From positions 1,116,001 through 1,180,000 of the forward strand of contig NZ_CP046582.1 of assembly GCF_018141005.1 (NCBI RefSeq): DNA of 64,000 nucleotides, in the 5' to 3' direction. The notes under the pieces are model-generated. The model saw only the letters and a list, made by a program, of their open reading frames with translations, ran no database searches and was not told where the DNA came from. The stretch is from Erwinia sp. E602 (GTDB lineage Bacteria > Pseudomonadota > Gammaproteobacteria > Enterobacterales > Enterobacteriaceae). Both the position numbers and the translations under genes were made by a program. Shown piece after piece: positions 940 through 50,363 of this stretch (the first letter of the stretch is position 1; the number at the start of each line of letters is the position of its first letter).

Positions 940-1506
940 TCACTGCGCGGTAGGCTGGACCATCGCCGCGGGTGGTTTGTTATGCGCCAGATACTGATGC
1001 TGGAACAGGCACATACGTATGCAGTTGCGATACTCACCGTTAATAAAGAATTCGTGGATCAGTCGCCCTTCGGTTTCAAAGCCCAGCTTGCGGTAGATGT
1101 GCACCGCTTTTTCATTCTCTTCGTCCACGATCAGGTAGAGCTTATACAGGTTGAGGACGGAAAACCCGTAGTCCATCGCCAGTATTGCCGCGCGGCTGGC
1201 CAGCCCTTTGCCCTGGTGGCTGGGGGCGATGATAATCTGAAACTCCGCCCGGCGGTGAACGTGGTCGATCTCCACCAGCTCGACCAGCCCGGCGTTTACC
1301 CCTTCATACACCACCACAAACCGCCGTTCGCTCTGATCGTGAATATGTTTGTCGTACAGGTCGGAGAGTTCGACAAAGGCCTCATACGGCTCTTCGAACC
1401 AGTAACGCATCACGCTGGCGTTGTTGTCCAGCTGGTGAACAAAGCGCAGATCTTCGCGTTCCAGCGGCCGTAGTTTAACGGGATTATCGGTGAGCCTGGC
1501 AGACAT
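940..1506 (-). CDS. speG: spermidine N1-acetyltransferase
   Basis: 188-residue cytoplasmic GNAT-fold enzyme that acetylates spermidine and spermine from acetyl-CoA, limiting polyamine toxicity. The sequence is nearly collinear with E. coli Spe[20 protein letters not shown] near the N terminus, [20 protein letters not shown] at about residues 35-55, and the acetyl-CoA binding loop [12 protein letters not shown] at about 95-107. The catalytic tyrosine region [20 protein letters not shown] follows. Length matches the family (about 186 residues). It is a single-gene unit in this window, preceded on its strand by a short spacer from tsx. Confidence 0.97.
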
Positions 1507-1563
1507 GGAACCTCCATTAACAGATGCAATATTGCTCCGACAGTATAAAGGTTCAGGGCAGAC

Positions 1564-1589
1564 AAAAAAAACGCGCCCATGGGCGCGTT
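1564..1589 (-). terminator. intrinsic terminator of tsx
   Basis: Read on the minus strand, AACGCGCCCATGGGCGCGTT forms a perfect self-complementary hairpin at 1570-1589. It is followed by a run of eight T residues (plus-strand A run 1564-1571). It lies 25 bases past the tsx stop codon. Confidence 0.88.
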
Positions 1590-1614
1590 CAACGGAGGTT
1601 TAACCGGGCGGGGA

Positions 1615-2481
1615 TCAGAAGTTGTAACCCACAACCACGTAGTAACCAAAGCCGTTCGATTTCACGGTGAAAGGACCTTTACCAAAGTCCAGTTCGTTGC
1701 CGTCGTTCCACTGGCCGCCGTTATGGAAGTAACGCGCCACGAACGAGTAGTGCCAGTGATCGTAGCCCAGTGACAGAATGTGGCTGGAGGCGATGGAGTT
1801 GCTGGTACGCAGCGGTGCCGCATCGTCGCCCAGATCGGAGCCCCAGTCGAAGTTAGTGAAACCAATGTAGCTGAGGTTACCGCCCCACAGGGAGGTCAGC
1901 GGCACAAAATATTTCACCTTGAAGCGGTAGCCGTCCCAGCTGTTTTCGTTAGCGGCACCGTAGTTGGCCCACTGACGCTTGGCGTAAACGTTCAGCGACA
2001 GGCCGACATCAGAATGGGTGTCGATATCGGTGCCCAGACCCATATACCAGGTGTTCTGACGGTTAGCGCGGTTATCGCCCATATCATAGATATAGTTGTT
2101 GGCGAAGTACCACTCTTTAAACGGACCGAAGCTCAGATCGGTGCCGGTCAGCTTGTCGATCGAGAAGCGCGGTTCAATCTCCATAAAGAACGGTGAACCA
2201 TCGTCCCATGCGCCTTTATCGTTGCCGTTACCCACGCCGAAGAACTTCGGCACGTCAACGTAACCGTAGAAATCAAACCAGTCCTTGTGCGCGAAGGCTT
2301 CATATTCCAGGTAAACATCATTATTCAGCTGCGGCCCGAAGCGGGTGTGGTAGCTGCCCACCACGTTCACGCTCTGATGCCACCAGTCGGAAACGTACTC
2401 TGCTTTGCCGGCATCGGCGACGGAGACATTGGTGTAAGAGAGCGCAGCCAGTGCGCCAGCCATCATAATTTTATATTTCAT
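1615..2481 (-). CDS. tsx: nucleoside-specific outer-membrane channel Tsx
   Basis: 288-residue outer-membrane beta-barrel that admits nucleosides and deoxynucleosides; in E. coli it is also a phage and colicin receptor. The start MKYKIMMAG (ATG at 2481) gives a normal signal peptide ending ...SVADA. The mature protein begins [20 protein letters not shown], diagnostic for Tsx, and ends in an aromatic residue (YVVVGYNF), typical for BAM-assembled barrels. An in-frame codon 12 bases upstream is possible but would spoil the signal peptide. A CRP-type site lies about 200 bases upstream, consistent with the cAMP-CRP control known for tsx elsewhere. Confidence 0.96.
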
Positions 2482-2682
2482 TATTATTACCACATGCTCA
2501 GGGACCCGGCTCAGCGGCCAGCGCGCAGGTCAGATTAGGTTATATCGCGTCATTAAACGGCGGCGTTAAGCAAAGCCGTTAAGGCAACGGGTTATGCCGC
2601 GGCAGTGTGCCGTGATTCGTGCCTTAGGAAATAGAGATTGCTCACAGTTGTCAATTTGTGTTTCATTTCAATTCAGTTAAAG

Positions 2683-2698
2683 TGTGACCATGATCACA
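2683..2698. promoter_or_regulatory. CRP (cAMP receptor protein) binding site upstream of tsx
   Basis: The sequence TGTGA-CCATGA-TCACA matches both half-sites of the CRP consensus (TGTGA-N6-TCACA) exactly. It lies in the 404-base spacer between the tsx start (2481) and the end of the DUF4056 remnant (2885). The site is about 200 bases from the tsx start codon. Apart from this site I see no gene in the spacer; it is AT-rich and includes the tsx promoter region. Confidence 0.85.
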
Positions 2699-2884
2699 AA
2701 TAAAGCTTGCTGGCAGGGAACTTTTTCGAAAAACAGATTTCAGGCCATATGTTGCCCAGGTAAACGGTTGCCTGGAGGAATAACAGCGGCTGGTGGGCAA
2801 GAGCGCAGCCAGGGGGAAGCTGCTGCGGCCGGGTAGGTGACGAAGAAGTATAACGTATTCTTATGGTTGCCGGTGTCACAACGC

Positions 2885-3546
2885 TCAGCGACAGGCTTCT
2901 CCAGACTGTGCCAGCTGCCACCTGTCGGCCTGCTCAGCAGCCTGCGCCAGCGCGGGAAAGTCGCGGTAGCGGTAAGCGATCTTTGGCGCGGGCAGGCGCG
3001 CGCAGCCAGCCGGGTCGCCAGATTGTAGCGTTCAGTCGCGCTGGCTGGCGGCACGAAGGCGAGCAGCTCGATAATGCGTTCGCCGAGCTCATCATGAAGC
3101 GCGATACGCCGCGGATGACCTTCCGCCTGCCAGATCTGGCTAAACAACCACAGCGTGTTGTCTGCCGTCTCGCGCAGATGCGCCAGATCGATAAAGCCAC
3201 CGCGCCGGGTATAGATCTGCGCGTTGTGCTCACCGTTAATCCCGACAAGGCTTAACAGCGCGTAAAGCGGCTGATTATTGTAGTGATGCACGCCGGTGTT
3301 ATCGGCGTCGACCACGTTATCCAGCTGGTAAAACGGCACCGGGATGCTCAGCAGCTGCGTGCGCAGGTTATAACCAAACGCACAGCACGGGCGCAGGACA
3401 TACGGGGGCGACAGCGGCGGAACGGCGGGCCAGGCCTGTTGTGCGCTGACGACGGACTGTTGCAGCGGTGGCAGGTGCAGGGACTGAGAAGGCGGGGCCT
3501 GGCAGGCCGACAACAGCAGCACCAGCAGAGAGAGCAGATAACGCAT
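2885..3546 (-). pseudogene. DUF4056-family lipoprotein, frameshifted and shortened
   Basis: The ATG at 3546 has a good ribosome site (GGAGGG, 7 bases upstream) and starts a lipoprotein (MRYLLSLLVLLLSAC, lipobox Cys at residue 14). The DUF4056 signatures RPCCAFGYNL, NVVDADNTGVHHYN, IYTRRGGFIDLAHLR and ADNTLWLF follow. After ...YNLATRLAAR the frame changes. A second frame starting near 2998 reads LPAPKIAYRYRDFPALAQAA... to a TGA at 2885-2887 and looks like the true C terminus, while the uninterrupted frame runs on to 2740 as low-quality sequence. The family normally continues with a long helical section after the 'LA.RLA' point, as I recall it, so an internal deletion plus a frameshift seems likely. 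I call it a pseudogene. Confidence 0.6.
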
Positions 3547-5118: not shown

Positions 5119-6171
5119 CTATTGAGGTATCAGGGATAATGCGTCGTTGCCGGCACCCGGCGTCACGCTGATAATGTGACCACCCTGGCCGTACAGGCTG
5201 AATTTCACATCCTTTTCGAAACCGACTTTTCTCAGATCGACCATCCGCAGATTGTAATTATCATGCGTGCGGTAATAATAGCGCAGCCGCTTAAGGTCGA
5301 TCAGGCTAACCCAGCTGGTCTCCTCTCTGAGTACCTCGTCACCGTAGGTATCAGAAGGCACACCACGAGGGTAATCAACGTTGTTCAACAGATTAATCGA
5401 CTGATTAATGGCCGCAATGCTGTTCTCAGCCGGTGGCAATAATCCCTTGAGCACCGATATTTTGAGAAACCTTTCCATCGAACCATAACCGCCCGGCAAC
5501 GAGTCCAGCGTACCGGGCGCTCCACCGCCTCTCTTCTGTTCGGGATGCACCTCAAGCCAGTCTGACAGTTTCTGCCATTGCGTCTCAAGACGGGGTTCAT
5601 TCGTTAACAGTCGGTTGGCGCTGTTGTCGAGCACGTTCATTTTTCCGTTGTTAAACTCGACAACGTAATTCGCGCCTGAACTATCGGTTATCGCGTAGTG
5701 CGTCGGCGAGACATCGCCATAATCCGCATATTCCGCACTGTAGACGTTCATTTTGCCCAGCTGTGCAATAACGTCTTTGGCGCTGGAGAACTGCCCCAGC
5801 GCCCACCCTGCTACCGCCGTATTACTCAGGCTGTTTTGCTGATGTAAATTCGCAGGGTAGCGGCTGTCTTCGAACCACAACAGCGCTACGCTCAGCCCCT
5901 TCTCATTGATACCCTCCGTTAATATCCCGTAAGCCGTTTGAATGCCGGCGAAAGCCAGTTTTGATCGCCCGGCAGAAGCGGGCAGAGGCGTCCCTTTTTT
6001 GACAATGACAAAATCAGCAGGGAGCGATTGCCCCGTTTTGCTGTCCAGAGCGAACTCCATTGAACGGGCATTAATCAGGGTCTTATCCTGCGCAGTAATC
6101 TGAAAATGGATACAGGCACAGGCGCTGGTTGTTACGCTGAGGGTAAAGGCGACAACGGCTAATCTCTTCAT
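5119..6171 (-). CDS. secreted choloylglycine hydrolase / penicillin V acylase-like Ntn-hydrolase
   Basis: 350-residue protein of the linear amide C-N hydrolase family, which includes bile-salt hydrolase and penicillin V acylase. The signal peptide ends ...TTSACA and the next residue is the expected N-terminal nucleophile Cys (CIHFQIT) exposed after processing. Conserved family features include NARSMEF (equivalent of the N-x-R-x-M/D motif), GINEKGLSVALLW, SPTHYAITDSSG and LLTNEP. The natural substrate is probably a fatty amide such as an acyl-homoserine lactone or a conjugated acid, but this cannot be told from sequence. It is a single gene; no operon partner is visible. Confidence 0.87.
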   Translation of the reverse strand: MKRLAVVAFTLSVTTSACACIHFQITAQDKTLINARSMEFALDSKTGQSLPADFVIVKKGTPLPASAGRSKLAFAGIQTAYGILTEGINEKGLSVALLWFEDSRYPANLHQQNSLSNTAVAGWALGQFSSAKDVIAQLGKMNVYSAEYADYGDVSPTHYAITDSSGANYVVEFNNGKMNVLDNSANRLLTNEPRLETQWQKLSDWLEVHPEQKRGGGAPGTLDSLPGGYGSMERFLKISVLKGLLPPAENSIAAINQSINLLNNVDYPRGVPSDTYGDEVLREETSWVSLIDLKRLRYYYRTHDNYNLRMVDLRKVGFEKDVKFSLYGQGGHIISVTPGAGNDALSLIPQ

Positions 6172-6431
6172 TATTCATCCTGTTTACTTTCTGAAGAAAT
6201 TGAGTGTACTGATTAACGTTTTGATTGTTTTGTTAAAAGCGGCTTCTTTGGTTTGCACCACCGTTTACCCGCCGGAAGGTAAGAGGAAATAAGCCATGAA
6301 TCTGTCGCGAAACACCCTATATTTTTTATGTTCAGAGGCCAGCTTTATAATAATTTACCCGCTGTTCCCCCTCTAATAACCTGAAGTCCGACGAACGGGT
6401 TCCCTGACCGATATTTTCGAAGGACAACCGT

Positions 6432-7685
6432 ATGACCAGGCAAAAAACAGTCGTTGATACCCTTGTGGTGGGGGGAGGCCAGGCCGGTATCGCCATGAGC
6501 GAGCACCTGACCCGGCACGATATTTCCCACCTCGTACTGGAAAAGAACCGAATTGCAGAAGCCTGGCGTTCCGGGCGCTGGGACTCTCTGGTCGCCAACG
6601 GCCCTGCCTGGCACGATCGCTTCCCCGGTCTGACGTTTTCCGGACAGGCACCGGGCGACTTTGTGCCCAAAGATCAGATTGCCGATTATCTGCAAGCCTA
6701 CGCACGCAAATTCAAGGTACCGCTGCGTACCGGGGTGGAAGTGAAAAGCGTTGTGCGCAATACCGGCCGGGCGGGTTTCACTGTGAAAACGTCTGACGGG
6801 ATGATTGAAGCACTGCGCATCGTTGCCGCCACCGGTCCCTTCCAGGTGCCGGTGATCCCGCGCATTGCGCCGGTGCACGCTGAGCTTTATCAAATCCACT
6901 CGGCACACTATTTCAATCCGCAGCAGCTGCCGGAAGGGGCCGTGCTGGTGGTCGGTGCCGGTTCATCGGGTGTGCAAATCGCCGATGAGCTGCAGCGCGC
7001 AGGAAAAACCGTTTATCTCTCCGTCGGGCCGCACGACCGCCCGCCGCGCGCCTACCGCAACCGCGATTTTTGCTGGTGGCTGGGGGTGCTCGGCCTGTGG
7101 GATGCCACAACCAGTGAACCGGGTAAAGAGCACGTCACCATTGCGGTGAGCGGCGCCCGCGGCGGGCACACCGTCGATTTTCGCGTGCTGGCGAAGCAGG
7201 GCGTGACGCTGGTGGGTATGACTCACGCGTTTGAACAGGGCGTGGTGACCTTCCGGCCCGACCTGGCAGAGAATATTCGTCGGGGGGATGAAAACTATCT
7301 TTCACTGCTGGATGCCGCCGATGCCTTTATCGCCCGCAACGGGCTCGATCTGCCGGAAGAATCTGCCGCGCGGGAGTTTCTGCCGCTGCCCGCGTGCGTC
7401 AGCGCACCGCTCTCCTCGCTGAACCTGGCCGAAGCCGGCGTCAGCAGCATTATCTGGGCCACCGGGTATGCCACCGACTACAGCTGGCTGAAAGTAAACG
7501 CGTTTGATCAGCAGGGCAGGCCGCTGCATCAGCGCGGGGTCTCCAGCGAGCCGGGCGTCTACTTCCTCGGGCTGCCGTGGCTCTCCCGCCGCGGGTCGTC
7601 GTTTATCTGGGGCGTGTGGCATGACGCAGGGCATATTGCCGATCATATTGCCACGCAACGCAGGTACAGCGAGTTTCAGCCCTGA
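6432..7685 (+). CDS. flavin-containing monooxygenase-like NAD(P)/FAD oxidoreductase
   Basis: 417-residue flavoprotein with two Rossmann motifs. VVGGGQAGIAMSEHL near residue 12 binds FAD and VVGAGSSGVQIADEL near residue 175 binds NADPH. A late ATG motif (IIWATGYATDYSWL) near residue 345 and a GLPWLSRRGSSFIWGV terminus are typical of FMO/YUCCA-like single-component monooxygenases of bacteria. The start ATG at 6432 follows GAAGGAC. It heads a tight transcription unit with a RidA-like and a DUF1028 gene, so it may catalyse the first oxidation in a small catabolic route. The substrate is unknown. Confidence 0.87.
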   Translation: MTRQKTVVDTLVVGGGQAGIAMSEHLTRHDISHLVLEKNRIAEAWRSGRWDSLVANGPAWHDRFPGLTFSGQAPGDFVPKDQIADYLQAYARKFKVPLRTGVEVKSVVRNTGRAGFTVKTSDGMIEALRIVAATGPFQVPVIPRIAPVHAELYQIHSAHYFNPQQLPEGAVLVVGAGSSGVQIADELQRAGKTVYLSVGPHDRPPRAYRNRDFCWWLGVLGLWDATTSEPGKEHVTIAVSGARGGHTVDFRVLAKQGVTLVGMTHAFEQGVVTFRPDLAENIRRGDENYLSLLDAADAFIARNGLDLPEESAAREFLPLPACVSAPLSSLNLAEAGVSSIIWATGYATDYSWLKVNAFDQQGRPLHQRGVSSEPGVYFLGLPWLSRRGSSFIWGVWHDAGHIADHIATQRRYSEFQP

Positions 7686-7758
7686 TTCTGACGGGCGGCA
7701 GGGGCACACAGCGGGCAGCAACAGCTGTCCGAACCAACGGACTAAAGAGGAAAAAGAG

Positions 7759-8196
7759 ATGCCAACGCATACGCGCATTCGCATGTTTAACACCAAAGAA
7801 ACCTACCCGAATCAGACGCTGGATAACGACCTGTGCCAGGCGGTACGCGCCGGCAACACGGTCTATGTTCGCGGCCAGGTCGGCACCGACTTTGACGGGA
7901 AGCTGGTTGGCCTCGGCGATCCGCAGGCGCAGGCCGGGCAGGCCATGAAGAATGTCAGACAGCTGCTGGAGGAGGCGGGAAGCGATCTCTCCCATATCGT
8001 CAAGACCACCACCTACATCATCGACCCGCGCTACCGTGAGCCGGTCTATCGTGAGGTGGGCAAATGGCTGAAGGGGGTGTTTCCAGTCTCCACCGGGCTG
8101 GTGGTCTCTGCGCTGGCGCAGCCGCAGTGGCTGATGGAAATTGACGTGATTGCGGTGATCCCGGACGACCGGGATGCCGCAACTAAGGGGGCATAA
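7759..8196 (+). CDS. RidA/YjgF-family protein (enamine/imine deaminase-like)
   Basis: 145-residue protein starting MPTHTRIRMF at an ATG preceded by AAAGAGG. The RidA fold features are visible: VRGQVGTDFDGKLVG, the region AQAGQAMKNVRQLLEEAGSD, and VKTTTYIIDPRYREPVYRE. It lacks the canonical C-terminal 'RxxV' active Arg of true RidA at the usual place (ALAQPQWLMEIDVIAVIP), so it is probably a catabolic subfamily member, not the housekeeping RidA. Its stop overlaps the start of the DUF1028 gene (TAATG), indicating translational coupling. Confidence 0.85.
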   Translation: MPTHTRIRMFNTKETYPNQTLDNDLCQAVRAGNTVYVRGQVGTDFDGKLVGLGDPQAQAGQAMKNVRQLLEEAGSDLSHIVKTTTYIIDPRYREPVYREVGKWLKGVFPVSTGLVVSALAQPQWLMEIDVIAVIPDDRDAATKGA

Positions 8197-8870
8197 TGAC
8201 TTTTTCCGTTGCGGCCCGCTGCCCGGACAGCGGGCAGCTGGGCATTGCCATCAGTTCATCCAGCATCGCCGTGGGTGCCCGCTGCCCGTGGCTGCTGGCG
8301 GGGGTGGGCGCGGTATCCAGCCAGAATATCACCCTGCCGGTGCTCGGCCAGAGGGTGCTGGGCCACCTGGAAGACGGCCTGGCACCGGAGCAGGCGCTGC
8401 GCAAGGCGCTGGCAGAAGATGCGTTCAGCCAGTACCGCCAGGTGACGGTGATTGACATTGCCGGGCGAACGGCCCATTTCAGCGGCGATCGCACGCTCGG
8501 CACCTTCAGCGTGGCCGAGGGTCAGGACTGTATTGCGGGCGGAAATATGCTGGCCAGCCCGGCAGTAACCGCGGCAATGACCACGGCGTTCACTGAGGTC
8601 AAAGGAGCGTTTACCACGCGGCTGATTGCCGCCCTGCGTGCCGGGTTGACTGCCGGTGGCGAGGCCGGGCCGGTACATTCAGCCGCAGTCAACGTGGTGG
8701 ATAACTACGCCTGGCCGGTGGTCGATCTGCGGGTGGACTGGTGCGACACCGATCCGGTGGCCGCACTGGAGGCGCTTTGGCAGGCTTATGAACCGCAAAT
8801 GGCGGCCTATATCACCCGCGCGCTGGATCCGCGCCGGGCACCGGGTTACGGCGTTCCGGGCAGTGAGTAA
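8196..8870 (+). CDS. DUF1028 family protein (Ntn-hydrolase-like)
   Basis: 224-residue protein with the hallmark DUF1028 start MTFSVAARCPDSGQLGIAIS and the motif SSSIAVGARCPWLLAGVGAV. GPVHSAAVNVVDNYAWPVVDLRVDW follows near residue 165. Family members resemble Ntn-hydrolases and are often found in amide or amino-acid degradation loci. Here it is coupled to a RidA-like gene and a flavin monooxygenase, supporting a joint catabolic role such as opening an oxidised nitrogen heterocycle or an amide. That role is inference; the family assignment is firm. Confidence 0.9.
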   Translation: MTFSVAARCPDSGQLGIAISSSSIAVGARCPWLLAGVGAVSSQNITLPVLGQRVLGHLEDGLAPEQALRKALAEDAFSQYRQVTVIDIAGRTAHFSGDRTLGTFSVAEGQDCIAGGNMLASPAVTAAMTTAFTEVKGAFTTRLIAALRAGLTAGGEAGPVHSAAVNVVDNYAWPVVDLRVDWCDTDPVAALEALWQAYEPQMAAYITRALDPRRAPGYGVPGSE

Positions 8871-9430: not shown

Positions 9431-9775
9431 ATGCAACAATCACAACTGGTCACCGAGTTTAGCGAGTCTTTTAAAGACGTGCTGGCGACGCAGCAGCAGT
9501 ACCAACGCACCAGCGCCGCTGCTGAAAAGCTTGCAAAAGATTTTAATAAGTTCAGCAGCAGTAAACCGCCAGAAGTTCAGGAACTCGACTTTGCTCAGGT
9601 GCAGCAAACGGTCGCCAGCCTCGGTCAGCTCGGCGAGCAGCTGGGCCAGCAGCAAAACCACTACCATCAGCTGACGCAAAAACTGGAGCAGGCCGAGAAA
9701 GCCGAACGCCAGAAAAAAACCAAGCTGATTATCTTTGGCGTCATTGTGCTGTGGGGACTCTATCTTGTCTTCTGA
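9431..9775 (+). CDS. small helical tail-anchored protein of the FtsK/WXG operon
   Basis: 114-residue protein, almost entirely alpha-helical with heptad-like Gln/Leu/Ala content (residues about 5-90). A basic stretch (ERQKKTK) and one C-terminal membrane segment (LIIFGVIVLWGLYLVF) follow, so it is probably tail-anchored with the helical part in the cytoplasm. The ATG at 9431 is chosen because it starts the glutamine-rich region (MQQSQLV); an in-frame ATG at 9398 would add 11 unlike residues. It is the first gene of a seven-gene run on the same strand with spacings of 0-50 bases. No known family was recognised. Confidence 0.7.
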   Translation: MQQSQLVTEFSESFKDVLATQQQYQRTSAAAEKLAKDFNKFSSSKPPEVQELDFAQVQQTVASLGQLGEQLGQQQNHYHQLTQKLEQAEKAERQKKTKLIIFGVIVLWGLYLVF

Positions 9776-9788
9776 TTGGGAAAAGTCG

Positions 9789-12584
9789 ATGAACTCAACA
9801 TCCGGCTCCGTGGCGCTGCGCGCGGAACTTGCTAAAACTCGCCAGTCAATTGATGCACTGGAAGGGAAAATCCGTCAACAGGTGGGCTATCTGCAGAGCG
9901 CGGTTCCACTGCTGGCGCCTGCGCTGGAACAGCAATTCGCCGCCGAAGAGGCGCGGGTCAGAGCGCTTTATGACCAGATCCCGCTGCCGCTGTGCGCGCC
10001 ATGGGGAAGCGAATTCTGGGACCTGTTTAAGGCGGATAACGATCCGACGCCGCTGGAGTATTACCTCTACGGGCAGGTGGCAGTCCGCAAGCCTGACGGT
10101 AAACACGCCTTCCGGGTGATTTACCAGCCGCTGCTGCGGGCGGAAGGCGCGGTGATCCTGCTGACCGACAACAACAGCCTTGAGCGTTCGCGCGCGGTGC
10201 AGCGTGATATCGTACTGCGCACCGCCGCGCTGCTGCCAGGCAGCTCGACCTTTACCCTGTTTGACCCGAAAGGGCTCGGTGCCACCTTCCCGTTTGAGGC
10301 CAGCCTGCCGCGCACGCGCAAGGCCGGTAACACCCTCGGCGAGACGCTGACCACCATCACCCAGGATATCCAGCGCATTAACCAGCGGGTGGTTGGCGGT
10401 GCAGGCCGTTTCCTTGACCTGCCAAAAGAGAGCCGCTCCGGTGAATCCTTTGAGATCGTCGCGGTGGTCGACTTCCCGTCGGCCTACGAGCGTGAGCCGC
10501 GCGCGCTGGAACTGCTGACCCGTATCGGCGTCTCCGGACCCCGCGCCGGCCGTCATCTGGTGCTGGAGTACAACACTTCCTCGCCGCTGCCGCGTGATTT
10601 CGATATGAAAGCGTTTGAGAATGCGGTGGTGATTGACTGTCGTGAAGAGAGCGGGCTGCTGATCCCGGAATTCGCCAGCCACCAGCAGATTGAGAAGTTG
10701 CTCGACCAGGCCGGCGCCAGCAACCGCCAGCAGAGCAGTAACAGTTTTAACGCGCTGGCCAGTGCAGACGAGATGATGACGGCCAGCTCGGCCGAACGTA
10801 TTGAAACGCCGGTCGGCGAGCGGCTGAATATTCTGTTTGGTAAGCATCACGCATCCGGTGAAGTGGCGCACGGCGTGATCGCCGGCCAGGTCGGCTCCGG
10901 TAAATCGCATCTGCTGCACGTGATTATCTCCGGCCTGACCAGCCGTTACTCGCCGGATGAGCTGAAGCTCTACCTGCTGGACGCCAAGCACGGCGTGGAG
11001 TTTAAACTCTACAACCAACTGCCGCACGCGGAAGTGGTGTCGCTACGCACCCGTCCGGCGATCGCGCGCAAAATCCTCGCCGACTTCCACGCCGAGATGA
11101 AGCGCCGCTATGAGCTGTTCAAGGATGAGAACGTCAACAACCTCGCCGCGTACCGCAGCAAAACCGGCAAGGTGCTGCCGCGTATGCTGATGATTATCGA
11201 CGAATATCAGCTGGTGTTTGAGGGCGACCCGCAGGCGGGCATGGACGAACTTGGCCCGATCCTGCGCATGGGGCGCGCGGCGGGTACCCACCTGCTGCTC
11301 TGCGCCCAGCGCTTTGACGTGGAGGGGATGCGCAGCAGTAACTTTAACGAAATCCACCTGCGCGCCTCGCTGTCGCTGGCACAGGACTATATTCAGACCA
11401 TCTCCGCCTTTGGCGCCGAGGGTAAACGCCTGATCCGCGACCTGGCCGCCTCCGGTGAGCTGGTCATTAACGCCCAGTCCGGTCGCGATGGCGATAACCA
11501 CCGTGGTGCGGTCGCTCGCCTGGCACGTCGTGATGACTATCAGGGTGCAGATGAGACCCAGCCGACGCTGGAAGCGGTGATCGATAGCATTGTTGCCCAC
11601 GCCGGCCCGCAGGCGTCACGGCCAATTATGCTGGATGGCACCATGGCCAGCACGCTGGCCGATAACGCCTTTGTGATGAAGCATCAGAGCGCGCCGCCGT
11701 CCATCGACGAGTTGCAGCGTATTGCCGCCACGCCGCTGCGCGACGGCGGTTTTGAGGAGCGGATGTGGACGCCTTCCGGCAGGCCGATCGGCCTGTGGCT
11801 GGGGCGCAACTTCGACGTGCGTTCCCACGCGCTCTGCACTCTGCGCCGCGGCCGCGGCCAGAACCTGCTGATGGTCGGTGCGCGCACCGAGCTGCGTGCG
11901 GCGATGCTGGCCAATATGATTATCGGCCTGCCTGCCACCGTAAACCCGCAGGAGATTGACCTGACGGTGATTGACGCGCTGGATCCGTATCTGCCGGGCG
12001 GCGGCATCGTGCGCACGGCTGCTGAGTATCTGCAGGGGCTGGGTGCAAACGTCACTATCGCCGATGCCGACGGTGCCGAAGCGGCATTGACCGGTTTTGC
12101 CGACGCCGCGCACACCCGCCAGGGGCTGCTGGTGGTCTGCGAGCCGGACCGCATCAACGCGCTGGTTGACGGTTACGACCCGTATGGTGCACCGGAAAGC
12201 GGCCTGTGGGCCACCTGGCGCGACCTGGTCCGCCGTGGCAGCGACCGCTCACGCCACGTGATCGTCTCCGCTGAGTCGGTACCGGCGCTGCAGAGCTTTA
12301 TGAATCCGTCCCGCGACGGCCGCGACTTTATCCATCGCGTGGTGCAGCAGCTCAGCGCCGACGACTCAATGACGCTGTTCGCCTCGCTGGCGGCCACGCA
12401 GATCGAAGAGATGACCGAGCATCCGCTGGCGGCGATGTACGTTGACCTGGTCAAGGGCGAGCGCGCCCGTAACCTGTTCAGCAGCTACGCCTTCGACCAC
12501 GATATCGGTCGCGAGCAGACCCGCGAGCTGCTGCAGCAGATGCTGGACAAATCCTTTGCCGGGGTGCCCGTTGTTGCTGAATGA
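9789..12584 (+). CDS. FtsK/SpoIIIE-type ATPase resembling EccC/EssC of type VII secretion
   Basis: 931-residue protein with no membrane segment. An N-terminal coiled coil (about residues 5-65) is followed by a degenerate ATPase-like domain (about 100-290). A canonical FtsK domain comes next, with Walker A GQVGSGKSH at about 366-374 (Lys 372) and Walker B MLMIIDEY at about 466-473; downstream GRAAGTHLLLCAQRFD is the typical FtsK sensor stretch. A third, degenerate P-loop-like domain starts near LLMVGARTELRAA (about 693-705; no Walker lysine). Three tandem ATPase modules with one active site is the layout of EccC/EssC motor proteins, which thread WXG100 substrates. Unlike them it lacks N-terminal membrane helices; the operon's own membrane proteins may supply the anchor. 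Start ATG 9789 sits 13 bases past the previous stop. Confidence 0.85.
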   Translation: MNSTSGSVALRAELAKTRQSIDALEGKIRQQVGYLQSAVPLLAPALEQQFAAEEARVRALYDQIPLPLCAPWGSEFWDLFKADNDPTPLEYYLYGQVAVRKPDGKHAFRVIYQPLLRAEGAVILLTDNNSLERSRAVQRDIVLRTAALLPGSSTFTLFDPKGLGATFPFEASLPRTRKAGNTLGETLTTITQDIQRINQRVVGGAGRFLDLPKESRSGESFEIVAVVDFPSAYEREPRALELLTRIGVSGPRAGRHLVLEYNTSSPLPRDFDMKAFENAVVIDCREESGLLIPEFASHQQIEKLLDQAGASNRQQSSNSFNALASADEMMTASSAERIETPVGERLNILFGKHHASGEVAHGVIAGQVGSGKSHLLHVIISGLTSRYSPDELKLYLLDAKHGVEFKLYNQLPHAEVVSLRTRPAIARKILADFHAEMKRRYELFKDENVNNLAAYRSKTGKVLPRMLMIIDEYQLVFEGDPQAGMDELGPILRMGRAAGTHLLLCAQRFDVEGMRSSNFNEIHLRASLSLAQDYIQTISAFGAEGKRLIRDLAASGELVINAQSGRDGDNHRGAVARLARRDDYQGADETQPTLEAVIDSIVAHAGPQASRPIMLDGTMASTLADNAFVMKHQSAPPSIDELQRIAATPLRDGGFEERMWTPSGRPIGLWLGRNFDVRSHALCTLRRGRGQNLLMVGARTELRAAMLANMIIGLPATVNPQEIDLTVIDALDPYLPGGGIVRTAAEYLQGLGANVTIADADGAEAALTGFADAAHTRQGLLVVCEPDRINALVDGYDPYGAPESGLWATWRDLVRRGSDRSRHVIVSAESVPALQSFMNPSRDGRDFIHRVVQQLSADDSMTLFASLAATQIEEMTEHPLAAMYVDLVKGERARNLFSSYAFDHDIGREQTRELLQQMLDKSFAGVPVVAE

Positions 12585-12597
12585 GAGCTATCCACTG

Positions 12598-12846
12598 ATG
12601 AGAAACCTCCAGCGCGAGCTGGAGGCGTTCCACCAGGCGCTGGCCGGCCAGCAGAAAAGCCTGCAGGAGGGCTATGCGCTGCTGGGTGAGCTGTGGCGCG
12701 ATGAACAGCATCACGCCACCGCCGTGTTACTTGAGGAGTGCATCGCCGAGAACGATGCGTACCTGAAAACTGACGCGCCGGCGCTGGACGATCACTTAGC
12801 CGTGAAGCTGCGGCAGATCGCCAGCTATCTGCGGGGGAACGTCTGA
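12598..12846 (+). CDS. small WXG100-like helical protein 1
   Basis: 82-residue protein starting MRNLQRELEAFHQAL, predicted as two helices joined at a short turn holding LLGELWRDEQ (Trp 33). Size and the mid-protein Trp turn are those of WXG100 proteins, with 'WRD' in place of 'WxG'. It begins 13 bases past the ATPase stop. A TTG/CTG start closer to the ATPase stop is possible but I see no better ribosome site. The stop overlaps the ATG of the next gene by one base (TGATG region), implying coupled synthesis. The family assignment is by pattern, not by detectable homology. Confidence 0.6.
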   Translation: MRNLQRELEAFHQALAGQQKSLQEGYALLGELWRDEQHHATAVLLEECIAENDAYLKTDAPALDDHLAVKLRQIASYLRGNV

Positions 12847-13115
12847 TGAGCGCGCAGCAGACCGAACGGCTGCGCGACTATCGTGACGACATCGCCCGCC
12901 GCCTGCAGGAGGTGGAGCACCGCCGCGAGAACCTGATCGCCGCGTGGCACCGCCTGCGCCAGGCGTATCAGGGCGAGGGTGCAGAGGCGTTCAACCAGCA
13001 GTTTCAGCGCGCTACCCGGCGCTTTGAGCAGCAGGCGCAGCGCCTGCATCTTATTCTGCCGCGGCTGGACGCCATGCTCGAACAGCTGACCGCACAATCC
13101 CAATCAGAAGGTTAA
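12846..13115 (+). CDS. small WXG100-like helical protein 2
   Basis: 89-residue helical hairpin protein. The turn sits at residues 41-43 (YQG in LRQAYQGEGAEAFNQQF), the position and sequence context of the WxG turn of ESAT-6-type proteins, with Tyr replacing Trp. A second helix carries AFNQQFQRATRRFEQQAQRL. Length (89) is inside the WXG100 range (about 80-110). It overlaps its upstream neighbour by one base and is 4 bases from the downstream gene, so the three are probably made in stoichiometric amounts. It is a likely secreted substrate or structural partner of the FtsK-type motor (inference). Confidence 0.68.
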   Translation: MSAQQTERLRDYRDDIARRLQEVEHRRENLIAAWHRLRQAYQGEGAEAFNQQFQRATRRFEQQAQRLHLILPRLDAMLEQLTAQSQSEG

Positions 13116-13119
13116 CGGA

Positions 13120-14118
13120 ATGACACAGACCCCGCGTGAAGCCCAGTTTCTGATCGACCAGATCGAACAGGAGCTGCTGGACTGGAGCCGCAACTTCAAC
13201 GTGGTGCAGCAGGAGAACAAGGGCCACTTCCGCCGCGCTGATAACGTGGTGGCCGATTTCAAAGAGGGGGTATCGCTGGTCAGCAGTCAGATCGACGATG
13301 CCACGCAGCACCTGCACGAGGTGCAGGAGAAAAGCCATGCGGTGCGGGAGCTGGCCAACAGCACCGACGAACGCGCGGCACAGACCCATCGCCACGCGGC
13401 CAGCGTGTTTCAGCGCTGCCAGCGTGCCAGCGCGGAGTGGCGGGCGGCGCTGGAACGGGCCGTCCAGCTGGTGAGCCAGTGCCGGGCGGCGAAAATCCAT
13501 GCCGAAAGCCAGGTGGCCAGCGCACAGCATCAGTACAGCAGCGCCGAAGATGAGCTGAACTTCGCCCGCAGTTCGTATAACCGCTGCACCAGCTCGTATA
13601 CCACCAACTCGAAGGGCGAACGCATCCAGCCGAACTGCAGCTCGGAAGCCTCGCGGATGAACAGCGCAATGCGCAACGTCGACAGCGCACTGCAGCGGCT
13701 GAACCACTGTAAGGCGCTGCTGCAGGATGCCATCGCGCGGCTGAACGATGCCCTCAACAGGCACCGTGGCTGCGAAGAGGGCGTCAGTAAAACCGAACAG
13801 GCGCTGCATCACGCCGATCAGGCGCGGGATCGCGCCAGCCAGGCCAGCCACAGCGCGCGGGAAGCGCTGCAGTGGGCTGATGAAGCCTGGCAGCAGGCGC
13901 AGCACGGCAGCCGGCTGGCGGAACAGATGAGCGCCCAGCACCAGACCGCCAGCCAGCACACCACGCAGGCAGAAGATGAGGTGGCCGATGCGCTGCAGGG
14001 GCACTACGCCTTTGAGGGTTCGCTTGAGGAGTACCAGAGCCGCCAGTGGCGCGCGCGCGAAGAGCTGAGCGATGCCTTTGAAGCGCTGCGACAGATCAAC
14101 AGTAAAGAGGGCCTGTAA
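13120..14118 (+). CDS. long coiled-coil protein of the FtsK/WXG operon
   Basis: 332-residue, nearly all-helical protein rich in Gln, Ala, Ser, His and Glu with no signal peptide or membrane segment. Helices at about 1-90 and 110-170 are followed by a Cys/Ser/Asn-rich loop (SYNRCTSSYTTNSKGERIQP, about 150-170) and a long second coiled coil to about residue 300. The N-terminal part (QELLDWSRNFNVVQQENKG) may itself be a divergent WXG-type hairpin. It is comparable in style to long LXG/WXG-family substrates, but I recognise no family. It overlaps the next gene by one base (TAATG). Confidence 0.7.
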   Translation: MTQTPREAQFLIDQIEQELLDWSRNFNVVQQENKGHFRRADNVVADFKEGVSLVSSQIDDATQHLHEVQEKSHAVRELANSTDERAAQTHRHAASVFQRCQRASAEWRAALERAVQLVSQCRAAKIHAESQVASAQHQYSSAEDELNFARSSYNRCTSSYTTNSKGERIQPNCSSEASRMNSAMRNVDSALQRLNHCKALLQDAIARLNDALNRHRGCEEGVSKTEQALHHADQARDRASQASHSAREALQWADEAWQQAQHGSRLAEQMSAQHQTASQHTTQAEDEVADALQGHYAFEGSLEEYQSRQWRAREELSDAFEALRQINSKEGL

Positions 14119-14552
14119 TGGACGCATCCCTGCAGATCCAGTCGATCTACAACCTGGTGGAGGAGCACACGATGCTGTTCTCGCACCAGGTGAACCAGTA
14201 CCACGATGAATCCCGCGAGCTGCTGCGCCGCTGGAGCGACAGCCGCTCGCTGGATTTTCAGAAAGCGCATCAGCCGGGGCTGAATGAGATCTCCTACGAG
14301 GCGGTGGAGATCCTCAAACGTGCACGTCTTAACCTGCACGCCGCACAGCAGGCGATCGGTCTGGGTGAGGATCATCTGCGCCAGGCGCGATCGACGATGA
14401 GCTCGCTGGAGGAGGTGACCGGGGAATCGCTGATGCTGCAGCAGCGCGCCAGCGACTACGCCGACCGCGCCGCGATGGCGATGCACAACGCGGAGTACAG
14501 CGCCGCTGACGCCGAACAGCTGATCGCCTCGCTGGGTACGCCGCCGGTTTAA
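14118..14552 (+). CDS. WXG100-like helical protein 3 with C-terminal extension
   Basis: 144-residue helical protein. The first 65 residues form a putative hairpin with the turn RELLRRWSDSRSLDFQKAH (Trp at about residue 39), the spacing expected of a WXG100 protein, with WSD in place of WxG. The C-terminal half adds Ala/Met-rich helices (RASDYADRAAMAMHNAEYSA). Its start overlaps the previous stop by one base. It is probably a partner or substrate of the motor encoded upstream; this is inferred from the operon and fold pattern. Confidence 0.65.
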   Translation: MDASLQIQSIYNLVEEHTMLFSHQVNQYHDESRELLRRWSDSRSLDFQKAHQPGLNEISYEAVEILKRARLNLHAAQQAIGLGEDHLRQARSTMSSLEEVTGESLMLQQRASDYADRAAMAMHNAEYSAADAEQLIASLGTPPV

Positions 14553-14600
14553 GCCGGCGTCATTTCTCTGGCCTGTTTTAACCCACTAACGGACTGCCCC

Positions 14601-15530
14601 ATGACGCTCTCTCCGCTCGACGAGCAACTGACCCAACCCGCCGCCCGCCGCAGCTGGACGGCTTTCTCGCTGAACCTGGTGCTGCTGCTGGTCACCCTGC
14701 TGTGGCTGGCTTTTGCGCTCAGCGCGCTGTACGCCGCCCGTGAGATCGGCTTCTTCCGCGCCACCGCGCTGATCTTCTGGCTGATGGCCGCCAGCGGCAC
14801 GCTGCTGCTGCTGGCCACGCTGGTGGCCGAGCCGCTGCTGAAGCGGATCAAGGCCAGCGGGCTGGCGATAATCCTGCTGGCACTGACGCTGATTGCCGGC
14901 ACTACCTGGGCCTCCAAAGCCTGGGTACTGCATTTTATTTCCGACAGCGTGGCGGCGATGCCCGCCGAACAGAAAACGAACGTGTTTGGCGTCAATAAGC
15001 TGCTGGTTAACAAAACCACGCCACAGCTGGCCGTTGCCTTCGGCGTTAGCGATCGGCCGGTGCCGGAAGGTGAACTGCTGGCGCTGCGCAGCCTGCAGCT
15101 GGCCAGCGGCGTCACCGCGCCGCTGAAGGCGCGGCCGGTAAAGCTGGATCGTGAAACGACACGCCAGGTCATGGGGGTAATCTACAGCGCCGGTCTGACG
15201 GTGGCCCTCGGCAGCGTGCTGATCCTGCTTAACGCGCTGAGCCTGATCCTGCTGGCCGGACGGCTGCTTGCCGCGCTGCTGCCGCAGCAGGAGCGCCGCG
15301 TGCGGCTGGCATCCCTTGCCATCACGCTGGTGGCGGGCGCAGGGCTGTTCAGCAGCCTGATGGCGCAGCAGAGTGCGCTGACCGCCAGCGCCCACTATCA
15401 GGCCTTTGCGGCCGCGCTGGCCCTGCAGCAGGGAGAGGGTGCGGTGCGGCTGGCAACCTTTGCCATTCATGCGCAGGGGCATCTGCTGCCGCTGGCGGAG
15501 CGGGCGGCAGAGCAGCTGAATCTGCGCTGA
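14601..15530 (+). CDS. multi-pass membrane protein of the FtsK/WXG operon
   Basis: 309-residue integral membrane protein with about six hydrophobic segments: near 22-45 (SLNLVLLLVTLLWLAFALSA), 53-75, 84-100, 198-225, 235-255, and a weaker C-terminal one. Between the third and fourth lies a soluble domain of about 90 residues, probably periplasmic. It follows the 144-residue gene after 48 bases and ends the run. It is the obvious candidate for the inner-membrane anchor or channel of the system, since the ATPase has no membrane helices. No family was recognised. Confidence 0.72.
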   Translation: MTLSPLDEQLTQPAARRSWTAFSLNLVLLLVTLLWLAFALSALYAAREIGFFRATALIFWLMAASGTLLLLATLVAEPLLKRIKASGLAIILLALTLIAGTTWASKAWVLHFISDSVAAMPAEQKTNVFGVNKLLVNKTTPQLAVAFGVSDRPVPEGELLALRSLQLASGVTAPLKARPVKLDRETTRQVMGVIYSAGLTVALGSVLILLNALSLILLAGRLLAALLPQQERRVRLASLAITLVAGAGLFSSLMAQQSALTASAHYQAFAAALALQQGEGAVRLATFAIHAQGHLLPLAERAAEQLNLR

Positions 15531-50000: not shown

Positions 50001-50363
50001 TGGTGGAGCTGGCGGGAGTTGAACCCGCGTCCGAAATTACTACACCGTCGGCACTACATGCTTAGTCAGTCTTTACATTCGCCGGTCAGCTGCGGACAGA
50101 CACGCCACTGACAGACTAGCCTGATTAGTTTTAGTGCTTCAGCCCCAGGCAAGGCTTCCACACGATCTCTTTTGGGTTTGACCTCTCTTGATCCCCGTCT
50201 TAAGAGCGGAAGCTAGGGAGAGAGGGCTCAGAGCAGGGTATTAAGCTGCTAAAGCGTAGTTTTCGTCGTTTGCGACTATTTTTTTGCGGCTTTTAACGAG
50301 GCAAACCGCCCCTCGGCATGCTCCTAGGGCTACGCAAATCCCGTCGAATCCAGAATCAGCCCC
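50001..50363 (-). ncRNA. ssrA: transfer-messenger RNA
   Basis: 363-nucleotide tmRNA that rescues stalled ribosomes together with SmpB. The 5' end is GGGGCTGATTCTGGATTCGA at 50363 and the 3' tRNA-like end is ...CCGCCAGCTCCACCA at 50001. The tag reading frame encodes ANDENYALAA followed by TAA, identical to E. coli. A TATACT -10 box lies 15 bases upstream of the mature 5' end, allowing the usual 7-base leader. smpB follows upstream on the same strand. The 3' end is a known target of phage integrases, and a P4-like remnant is found on that side. Confidence 0.97.

What the first reader, a model, noticed from the sequence alone, without database searches (positions are those of the whole stretch)
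9431..15530. Type VII secretion-like operon with an EccC-like ATPase and WXG100-like proteins in a Gram-negative
Seven tightly packed genes encode a 931-residue FtsK/SpoIIIE ATPase with one canonical and two degenerate P-loop modules (EccC/EssC layout), three small helical hairpin proteins with a turn Trp or Tyr at the WXG position (WRD, YQG, WSD), a long coiled-coil protein, a tail-anchored helical protein and a multi-pass membrane protein. Known type VII systems belong to monoderms and mycobacteria; a clear counterpart in Enterobacterales is not one I recognise. The ATPase has no membrane helices, so the other two membrane proteins could anchor it. Secretion, phage defence or a cell-envelope or DNA role all remain open.
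Basis: partly seen in the sequence, partly recalled or inferred. Interest (0 to 1): 0.9.

Follow-up and report, generated by a model that had tools for sequence, protein, structure and literature searches.

The report
Type VII-like export cassette in Gram-negatives
A six-gene cassette found here and there, mostly in Gram-negative bacteria, looks like a stripped-down version of the type VII protein export machine of Gram-positive bacteria; some of its relatives carry toxin-like domains, so whether such machines work in bacteria with two membranes can now be tested.

Summary
At 9431-15530 lie seven same-strand genes: a tail-anchored protein (g1), an ATPase with three FtsK-like modules of which only the middle has a P-loop (g2), helical hairpins (g3, g4, g6), a coiled-coil protein (g5) and a membrane protein (g7). 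Genes 1-6 form a cassette with counterparts in 27 distinct loci from six phyla, mostly diderm; g7 is a local addition. The system is rare. The kind is already in print (Zhang 2012 footnote; Bell 2024 on CoCoNuTs; H. pylori HP0062/HP0066), as a prediction. The ATPase is a lineage beside FtsK and EccC/EssC; YukD and YukC are absent from this genome. What I add: (1) a membrane-anchor domain is fused to the ATPase in three Bacteroidota loci; (2) in some relatives g4-, g5- or g6-type domains are fused to AHH, GIY-YIG, GNAT or ADP-ribosyltransferase-like domains, with one C-terminal swap behind 110 identical residues; two of the three loci with a recognised domain are Chloroflexota and Actinomycetota; (3) a sister cassette pairs a WHH nuclease with a SUKH immunity-type protein. 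Best reading: WXG-dependent effector export (0.55). Main rival: intracellular defence (0.28). No effector was recognised in the window's own cassette.

The parts
9431..9775 (+). g1, 114 aa: helices plus C-terminal transmembrane segment; predicted membrane anchor of the ATPase
   Evidence: Hydropathy segment at 96-114. A gene with a C-terminal hydrophobic stretch adjoins the cassette in 22 of 28 loci, and a domain of similar topology is fused to the ATPase N-terminus in L023, L025 and L029. Homology of g1 to those proteins was not tested; the match is by position and topology.
9789..12584 (+). g2, 931 aa: soluble ATPase with three FtsK-like modules (about 102-330, 336-560, 641-905); only the middle one has a P-loop
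   Evidence: Pfam FtsK_SpoIIIE 4.1e-32; Walker residues; module profiles (the first module is only weakly tied to FtsK modules of EccC); trees.
12598..12846 (+). g3, 82 aa: WXG100-like helical protein with WRD
   Evidence: Family profile hits in 23 of 28 loci (most seeds come from these loci); hhalign to the g4 family probability 77, E 2e-5. Pfam finds no WXG100 match.
12846..13115 (+). g4, 89 aa: WXG100-like hairpin with YQG in the turn
   Evidence: Pfam WXG100 1.2e-5, 25.9 bits against a cut-off of 27.3; NCBIfam WXG100 2.1e-6, below cut-off; model pLDDT 93; Foldseek ranks 1-15 are EsxA/EsxB entries, none significant.
13120..14118 (+). g5, 332 aa: coiled-coil protein; in relatives sometimes the N-terminal part of longer proteins
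   Evidence: Profile A4: 27 of 27 genomes; fused to a GNAT domain in L021.
14118..14552 (+). g6, 144 aa: helical hairpin with a long second helix and WSD in the turn; in two relatives fused to AHH nuclease or ADP-ribosyltransferase-like domains
   Evidence: Model pLDDT 91; D41 in all and W39 in at least 90% of 20 rows; fusions in L026 and L042.
14542..14559 (+). terminator-like hairpin at the 3' end of g6, followed by a weak T run
   Evidence: Consensus scan; 11 such sites found against 5.6 +/- 3.1 in shuffles, so weak.
14601..15530 (+). g7, 309 aa: multi-pass membrane protein, probably a lineage-specific addition
   Evidence: Five predicted membrane segments; five proteins found in the database, one of them (99% identical) probably the window's own cluster and one named as Candidatus Pantoea; not related to the 799-aa membrane protein of Vibrio cassettes (hhalign probability 1.6).

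Best explanation
Genes 1-6 are a stand-alone, horizontally moving WXG/FtsK export cassette, a type VII-like machine found mostly in diderm bacteria. The ATPase forms a ring (inferred from FtsK kin) at the inner membrane, held there by the tail-anchored g1. The hairpins g3 and g4 act as targeting partners for long helical substrates of the g5 and g6 type, and the single active middle module drives export. In some relatives the g4-, g5- or g6-type domain carries a C-terminal enzyme domain, so the exported load is an effector, in several cases of the toxin kind. Shown here: gene order, two hairpin models, one active module, membrane-anchor fusions, enzyme-domain fusions and a C-terminal swap. Inferred: ring, export, partner binding, target. 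Unknown: the passage across the outer membrane and the effector of this strain.
For: ATPase followed by g3, g4, g5, g6 in 28 loci (27 distinct; not every gene found in each): g5 28, g4 25, g3 23, g6 22 (most seeds are from these loci, some misses are at contig ends). Genomes that gave no row: g4 8 of 8, g5 5 of 5, g6 5 of 7. The ATPase family profile against solved structures ranks T7SS ATPases (best domains YukB 104 bits, EccC 90 and 87) above FtsK (74). Hairpin models. Membrane domain fused to the ATPase in 3 of 4 Bacteroidota loci (topology only, homology to g1 untested) and predicted N-terminal membrane segments in 9 of 10 relatives of 1101-1118 aa. Fusions: g6+AHH 2.4e-17 (L026, Chloroflexota), g6+ART 4.7e-4 (L042, Actinomycetota, below cut-off), g5+GNAT 1e-6 (L021, Cyanobacteriota). 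P0100 and P0101 are identical over residues 1-110, then part into a REase-like region (0.019, weak) and a GIY-YIG domain (4.4e-5, over cut-off). A Helicobacter plasmid of the sister clade has WXG100-like (below cut-off), coiled coil+WHH nuclease (1.1e-11), SUKH immunity-type protein (1.6e-6), a 77-aa protein and FtsK in one row.
Against: No effector domain recognised in the window's g1-g7 and only one match each to the g6, g4 and g5 profiles in this genome (thresholds 1e-5, 1e-4, 1e-10). Two of the three loci with a recognised fused domain are Chloroflexota and Actinomycetota, not clear diderms. By eye, no immunity-like gene directly after the fusions of L021, L026 and L042, only a 56-aa ORF in L023; L021 has a 170-aa gene of no known family between g3 and g4. 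No YukD and no EssB/YukC in the genome. YxxxD/E near the C-terminus in 0 of 19 g4, 2 of 21 g6, 9 of 16 g3 sequences. No outer-membrane component recognised. The best trees set the ATPase apart from EccC/EssC, and the EssC model scores another FtsK-type protein of the genome (106.6 bits) above the window ATPase (83.7). The hairpin fold is not specific.
Confidence: 0.55

Rival explanations
1. An intracellular defence or conflict device: the FtsK-like ATPase and hairpins form a cytoplasmic or membrane-bound sensor, and the fused nuclease, GNAT or ADP-ribosyltransferase domains are abortive-infection effectors that act in the producing cell.
For: A sister-clade cassette sits beside VWA, CARF, phosphatase, kinase and AAA genes (Caballeronia plasmid L199), and others in Type III-A CoCoNuTs (PMC11090510, passages). 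By eye three of four fusion loci lack an immunity-like next gene. The window ATPase has no membrane part of its own. PADLOC: g2 matches the FtsK part of SspH (6.3e-27), g5 a Lamassu coiled-coil protein weakly (5.2e-5). Such effector domains are also common in defence systems (established knowledge).
Against: A SUKH immunity-type protein sits between a WHH nuclease and the ATPase in Helicobacter. A membrane anchor is a near-constant part. PADLOC gives no match to a system-specific part: the strong ones are to the FtsK domain, the rest are weak and mostly to coiled coils. In L033 and L037 g4, g5 and g6 have plain lengths, without room for an effector domain.
Confidence: 0.28
2. A DNA-handling or cell-envelope housekeeping complex: an FtsK-like pump with coiled-coil partners moving DNA or organising the membrane, unrelated to effector delivery.
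For: Best trees place the middle module on the FtsK side of EccC/EssC (95/91, 99/98). g5 matches SMC and Rad50 coiled coils weakly, which coiled coils commonly do. Six Vibrionaceae loci have a lipoprotein-like GDPD protein and/or a 790-800-aa membrane protein after g6.
Against: The FtsK group is a separate clade (100/100). Sporadic presence (full-length in 5 of 394 genomes of the order) speaks against housekeeping. WXG100 similarity and enzyme-domain fusions are unexplained.
Confidence: 0.1
3. A decayed or effector-less export cassette in this strain: a working type elsewhere, here reduced to its core and kept by chance or for another use.
For: No effector recognised in the cassette and no second copy of the g4, g5 or g6 profile in the genome; no full-length relative in 23 same-genus genomes.
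Against: g2 and g7 have full-length relatives of 82-86% identity in nearby taxa, which points to maintained genes; no selection test was run.
Confidence: 0.07

Closest known systems
WXG with 3-module FtsK ATPase, 'mobile versions of T7SS' (Zhang 2012 Table 1 footnote 6; Anantharaman 2012 as cited by Bell 2024)
   Same: Three FtsK/HerA modules with only the middle active, WXG-type small proteins; reported from beta-, gamma- and epsilon-proteobacteria, cyanobacteria, bacteroidetes, planctomycetes and verrucomicrobia.
   Different: The passages I saw speak of solo WXG domains and mention no tail anchor, second hairpin, g5/g6 or toxin fusions in these lineages. [quoted passage not shown] L026 and L042 agree with that, L021 (cyanobacterium) does not.
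EssC-like extension of Type III-A CoCoNuTs (PMC11090510) and TerY-P islands of Helicobacter (PMC4978471)
   Same: Sister clade by ATPase tree, as far as L198 and L199 represent it (96/94 together); WXG100 pair, coiled-coil-nuclease fusion, only the central module active, no transmembrane part.
   Different: Gene order in L198, L199 and the Planctomycete loci read is WXG, coiled coil, short protein, ATPase; the window type is tail anchor, ATPase, g3, g4, g5, g6, with no VWA, kinase or phosphatase seen next to it.
T7SSa-j (EccC/EssC systems of monoderms and mycobacteria; PMC11217815)
   Same: FtsK-type multi-module ATPase plus WXG100-type hairpins; the middle module scores best to EccC D1.
   Different: Separate ATPase lineage in the trees, no N-terminal TM in the window protein, no YukD or YukC in this genome.
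H. pylori HP0062/HP0066
   Same: A small hairpin with WRD in the bend encoded near an FtsK/SpoIIIE gene (PMC3397514, passages); g3 also has WRD; HP0062 (3fx7) is among the Foldseek matches of g4 and g6.
   Different: Probably of the other cassette type (an HNH nuclease cluster is listed with it in PMC4978471); no tail anchor described in the passages seen.

Membership tests
Type VII secretion system (EccC/EssC type) | FtsK/SpoIIIE ATPase that belongs to the EccC/EssC lineage | tested here: inconclusive
   Own clade; best trees put it with FtsK against T7SS modules (95, 95/91, 99/98); being with EccC D1/EssC is not rejected (AU p 0.10). Profile search of PDB ranks YukB/EccC above FtsK; the EssC model ranks another FtsK-type protein of the genome above the window protein.
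Type VII secretion system (EccC/EssC type) | Same set of active ATPase modules as EssC (first two of three; PMC11090510, passage) | tested here: inconclusive
   Only the middle module has GxGK[ST] (22, against 0 and 0 of 22). But the middle module scores best to EccC D1, so the numbering of the modules is unsure.
Type VII secretion system (EccC/EssC type) | Membrane-bound ATPase | tested here: inconclusive
   No membrane segment in g2. Relatives carry N-terminal or fused membrane segments; g1 may replace them.
Type VII secretion system (EccC/EssC type) | At least one WXG100 protein | tested here: inconclusive
   g4: Pfam WXG100 25.9 bits, cut-off 27.3; 10 of 20 family members match at E 0.01 or better. 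Strict WxG in 1 of 19 g4, 0 of 16 g3, 0 of 21 g6; YxG in 18 of 19 g4, WxD in 10 of 16 g3 and 20 of 21 g6.
Type VII secretion system (EccC/EssC type) | Known partners: YukD/EsaB (PF08817) and EssB/YukC (PF10140) | tested here: not met
   No match in the whole genome; the controls ring in B. subtilis only. EccB, EccE and EsaA were not tested.
Type VII secretion system (EccC/EssC type) | ATPase-dependent secretion | not testable with these tools
   Needs an experiment.
Stand-alone WXG/FtsK operon (Zhang 2012, Bell 2024) | Three FtsK-like modules, only the middle active | tested here: met
   The first module is tied to FtsK modules of EccC only weakly (best E 4e-4 among the rows printed).
Stand-alone WXG/FtsK operon (Zhang 2012, Bell 2024) | WXG-type small proteins in the same operon | tested here: met
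   g3 and g4 adjoin g2; WXG100 similarity under the cut-off plus hairpin model.
Stand-alone WXG/FtsK operon (Zhang 2012, Bell 2024) | Sporadic, mobile distribution | tested here: met
   Full-length ATPase in 5 of 394 genomes of the order, none of 23 same-genus genomes; g6 in 4 of 292, 1 of 251 and 1 of 369 genomes, each figure counting the centre genome itself; the window ATPase groups with P0022 (named Maricaulaceae), not with Vibrio. One full-length plasmid copy.
WXG100 hairpin fold | Antiparallel two-helix hairpin with the motif in the turn | tested here: met
   g4 H3-38/H44-88, g6 H3-38/H42-138. Foldseek top ranks are Esx but E at least 0.06 (g4) and 0.24 (g6); VIA-align gives unrelated hairpins equal Z (10.8 against 10.5 for 3fav_C), so the fold is not specific. 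g3 not modelled.
Polymorphic toxin system | Constant N-terminal domain joined to varying C-terminal toxin domains | tested here: met
   Met in relatives only (L021, L026, L042, P0100/P0101); not seen in the window.
Polymorphic toxin system | Immunity gene next to the toxin | tested here: inconclusive
   SUKH next to WHH in the sister clade (L198); none seen by eye directly after the fusions of L021, L026, L042.
Known anti-phage defence systems (PADLOC) | Match to a system-specific model | tested here: not met
   Strong matches of g2 only, to FtsK-type domains (SspH 6.3e-27, mad8 1.4e-8); the others are weak (best LmuB 5.2e-5 for g5) and mostly coiled coil.

The most novel reading that the evidence does not exclude
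A separate, full lineage of WXG-dependent effector-delivery machines exists, mostly in diderm bacteria, in which a soluble three-module ATPase with one working site is recruited to the inner membrane by a tail-anchored adaptor, and swappable toxins ride on g4-, g5- or g6-type helical domains; it would be a type VII-like system that evolved beside EccC/EssC rather than from it.
Probability: 0.37. Interest if true: 0.85.

Novelty: new variant of a known kind. Interest (0 to 1): 0.62.

Why it matters
A review states that WXG100 genes beside FtsK genes in Gram-negatives have not been confirmed as secretion systems (PMC10765036, passage). The anchor fusions, the enzyme-domain fusions with one C-terminal swap, and the nuclease-SUKH pair give concrete candidates and make that open question testable in harmless strains. 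If it exports proteins, diderms have a further route for effector delivery; if it is a defence device, WXG hairpins have a use outside secretion.

Tried and rejected
g7 as a relative of the 799-aa membrane protein downstream of Vibrio cassettes: rejected, hhalign probability 1.6. Homology of g6 to g4 by profile: not shown, probability 9.6. Phage origin: with the family profile 34 viral contigs match, all listed ones partial (the longest spans 582 of 931 residues); with a Vibrio relative (L034) as query 94 phage records match, none over 80% of it. E. coli: no match with the window DNA ('near') nor with the L034 ATPase DNA ('distant'). Search for more g4-fusions: 2 proteins among 42 candidates, one of them the query. 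VIA-align listed no fold that separates Esx proteins from other hairpins. Promoter scan: 1 found, 1.6 expected.

Papers: PMC3482391, PMC11090510, PMC4978471, PMC11217815, PMC3397514, PMC10765036, PMC3935865 and PMC4631099 were seen as passages only. Anantharaman 2012 is not held and is known only as cited by Bell 2024. Sutcliffe 2011 and Unnikrishnan 2017 were seen only as references. Searches behind 'not found in print'.

Rows dropped: the first tree used 68 of the 106 module rows; the second left out 5 of the 68 (63 rows); the third left out 11 and added 21 (78 rows). In one search, 55 of the 57 loci L044-L100 were tabulated. L103 repeats L034 (same genome). Odds: after rechecking, export was lowered from 0.58 to 0.55 and the novel case from 0.40 to 0.37, because two of the three loci with a recognised fused domain are Chloroflexota and Actinomycetota.

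Full report
What is there. Seven plus-strand genes, gaps of at most 13 bases within the first six. The window is part of contig C2 of a 5.17 Mb genome in two contigs. The operon is richer in G+C (g2-g7 0.63 to 0.67) than the window (0.578), while g1 is poorer (0.519). A weak terminator-like hairpin lies at the end of g6.

The ATPase. g2 has three FtsK-like modules: about 102-330, 336-560, 641-905. GxGK[ST] is in the middle module of 22 of 22 aligned relatives and in none of the outer ones. [quoted passage not shown] Bell 2024 (PMC11090510, passages) says the same of the EssC-like ATPases of Type III-A CoCoNuTs and cites Anantharaman 2012 for stand-alone copies.

Trees of the middle module. The window family, the long Planctomycete type, FtsK, and EccC second modules each form one clade; EccC first modules plus YukB form one group with weak support (87/23) and not. 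The window family and the Planctomycete type, with the Helicobacter and Caballeronia plasmid copies, belong together (96/94). The best trees place both on the FtsK side (95/91; 99/98); a tree that keeps them with EccC D1/EssC is not rejected (AU p 0.10). Long branches are present, so I call it a third lineage whose nearest kin is unsettled. Against solved structures the family profile prefers YukB and EccC to FtsK, but the NCBI EssC model scores another FtsK-type protein of the genome above the window protein, so single scores should not be leaned on. The window ATPase groups with a sequence named Maricaulaceae (P0022) and with relatives that carry their own N-terminal membrane segments, not with the Vibrio group, which suggests horizontal transfer.

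The small proteins. g4: two helices with Y41-x-G43 in the turn, pLDDT 93. The Foldseek list begins with 15 EsxA/EsxB chains, none significant (E 0.06 and up); VIA-align gives the same Z to unrelated hairpins. Pfam WXG100 matches 10 of 20 family members at E 0.01 or better, the window one just under the cut-off. g6: a hairpin whose second helix is long, W39-x-D41 in the turn; its Foldseek list is also headed mainly by Esx chains, not significant (E 0.24 and up). g3 aligns with the g4 profile; g6 does not. HP0062 of H. pylori, a solved hairpin with WRD in its bend and an FtsK gene in its cluster (PMC3397514, passages), is the closest published parallel of g3.

Conservation. Among 28 loci (27 distinct; Cyanobacteriota, Chloroflexota, Bacteroidota, Pseudomonadota, Actinomycetota, and a Deinococcus plasmid) g5 was found in 28, g4 in 25, g3 in 23, g6 in 22. 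Most seeds come from the same loci, so the fair figures are those of genomes that gave no row: g4 8 of 8, g5 5 of 5, g6 5 of 7 (the misses are G417, whose locus ends within g5, and the Shewanella genome G425). The tail-anchored gene is upstream of the ATPase in most loci and downstream of g6 in three Chloroflexota loci (L026, L027, L039). In 55 loci of the long type, mostly Planctomycetota, g3-like genes were found in 21 and g6-like in 18, upstream of the ATPase. The system is rare: full-length ATPase in 5 of 394 genomes of the order (5 more match over the FtsK domain only), none of 23 same-genus genomes, g6 in 4 of 292 Cyanobacteriota, 1 of 251 Chloroflexota and 1 of 369 genomes of the class, the centre genome counted each time and being the only hit in the last two.

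The anchor. A protein with a C-terminal hydrophobic stretch adjoins the cassette in 22 of 28 loci. In L023, L025 and L029 a helical domain with one membrane segment is fused to the ATPase N-terminus instead. Among ten relatives of 1101-1118 aa, nine have predicted N-terminal membrane segments, six of them two. So the ATPase probably works at the inner membrane, with g1 as its anchor; homology of g1 to the fused domains was not tested.

Enzyme-domain fusions. In L026 (Chloroflexota) a g6-type domain precedes an AHH nuclease domain (2.4e-17); in L042 (Actinomycetota) a g6-type domain precedes an ADP-ribosyltransferase-like domain (4.7e-4, under the cut-off); in L021 (Cyanobacteriota) a g5-type domain precedes a GNAT domain (1e-6) and a g4-type domain precedes a REase-like region (0.019, weak). 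P0100 and P0101 are identical over residues 1-110 and then part into different C-termini, the second a GIY-YIG domain above its cut-off; the organism of P0101 is not named. The two fused proteins of L021 share a similar linker (seen by eye). L023 (Bacteroidota) has a g5-type protein with a long C-terminus that matches no enzyme family. By eye, three of these four loci lack an immunity-like next gene and one has a 56-aa ORF; L021 also has a 170-aa gene of no known family between g3 and g4. In the sister clade the Helicobacter plasmid L198 has WXG100-like, coiled coil+WHH nuclease (1.1e-11), SMI1/KNR4 (SUKH, 1.6e-6), a 77-aa protein and FtsK. Zhang 2012 lists SUKH proteins as immunity proteins of polymorphic toxins (passages).

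Weighing. Varying enzyme domains on the hairpin and coiled-coil parts, the membrane anchor and the nuclease-SUKH pair favour effector export. The missing immunity genes in the window-type cassettes, the fact that two of three loci with a recognised domain are not clear diderms, the CoCoNuT and TerY-P-like surroundings of the sister type (L199) and the lack of partner proteins keep an intracellular defence role open. The window carries no recognised effector, so its load is unknown. I give export 0.55 and defence 0.28.

Novelty. The kind is published as a prediction (2012, 2016, 2024). The passages I read do not describe the tail anchor, a membrane domain fused to the ATPase, the g3-g6 set, or toxin fusions in cyanobacteria; I did not read these papers whole, and Anantharaman 2012 is not held. 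Hence new variant of a known kind.

Noticed in passing
L024, L028, L032, L034, L036, L040, downstream of the cassette: Vibrionaceae loci have, after g6, a protein of about 470-510 aa (GDPD domain in L034; by eye similar, with lipobox-like starts, in L024 and L032) and a multi-pass membrane protein of about 790-800 aa; possibly envelope parts of the system.
   Followed up: partly
L133 (G198), 1498-2985 minus strand: g5 and g6 are one open frame of 495 aa in this genome, which suggests that they act together.
   Followed up: no
L043 14712-15425: The protein encoded after g6 has an internal hydrophobic stretch and a C-terminal PEGA domain (1.8e-14), perhaps a periplasmic part of the anchor.
   Followed up: no
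L031 12423-12959: A JAB-domain protein (8.2e-7) follows the Microcystis cassette, then a WD40 protein of 1251 aa.
   Followed up: no
G000 contig C1:57445-57747: A further FtsK-domain protein (open frame 534 aa) on the other contig of the genome.
   Followed up: no
window 50001-50363, minus strand: tmRNA gene with tag ANDENYALAA.
   Followed up: no
window 5119-8870: Upstream genes: choloylglycine-hydrolase-like (minus strand, below NCBI's cut-off), MSMEG_0569-like flavin oxidoreductase (3.2e-111, below cut-off), DUF1028 protein.
   Followed up: no
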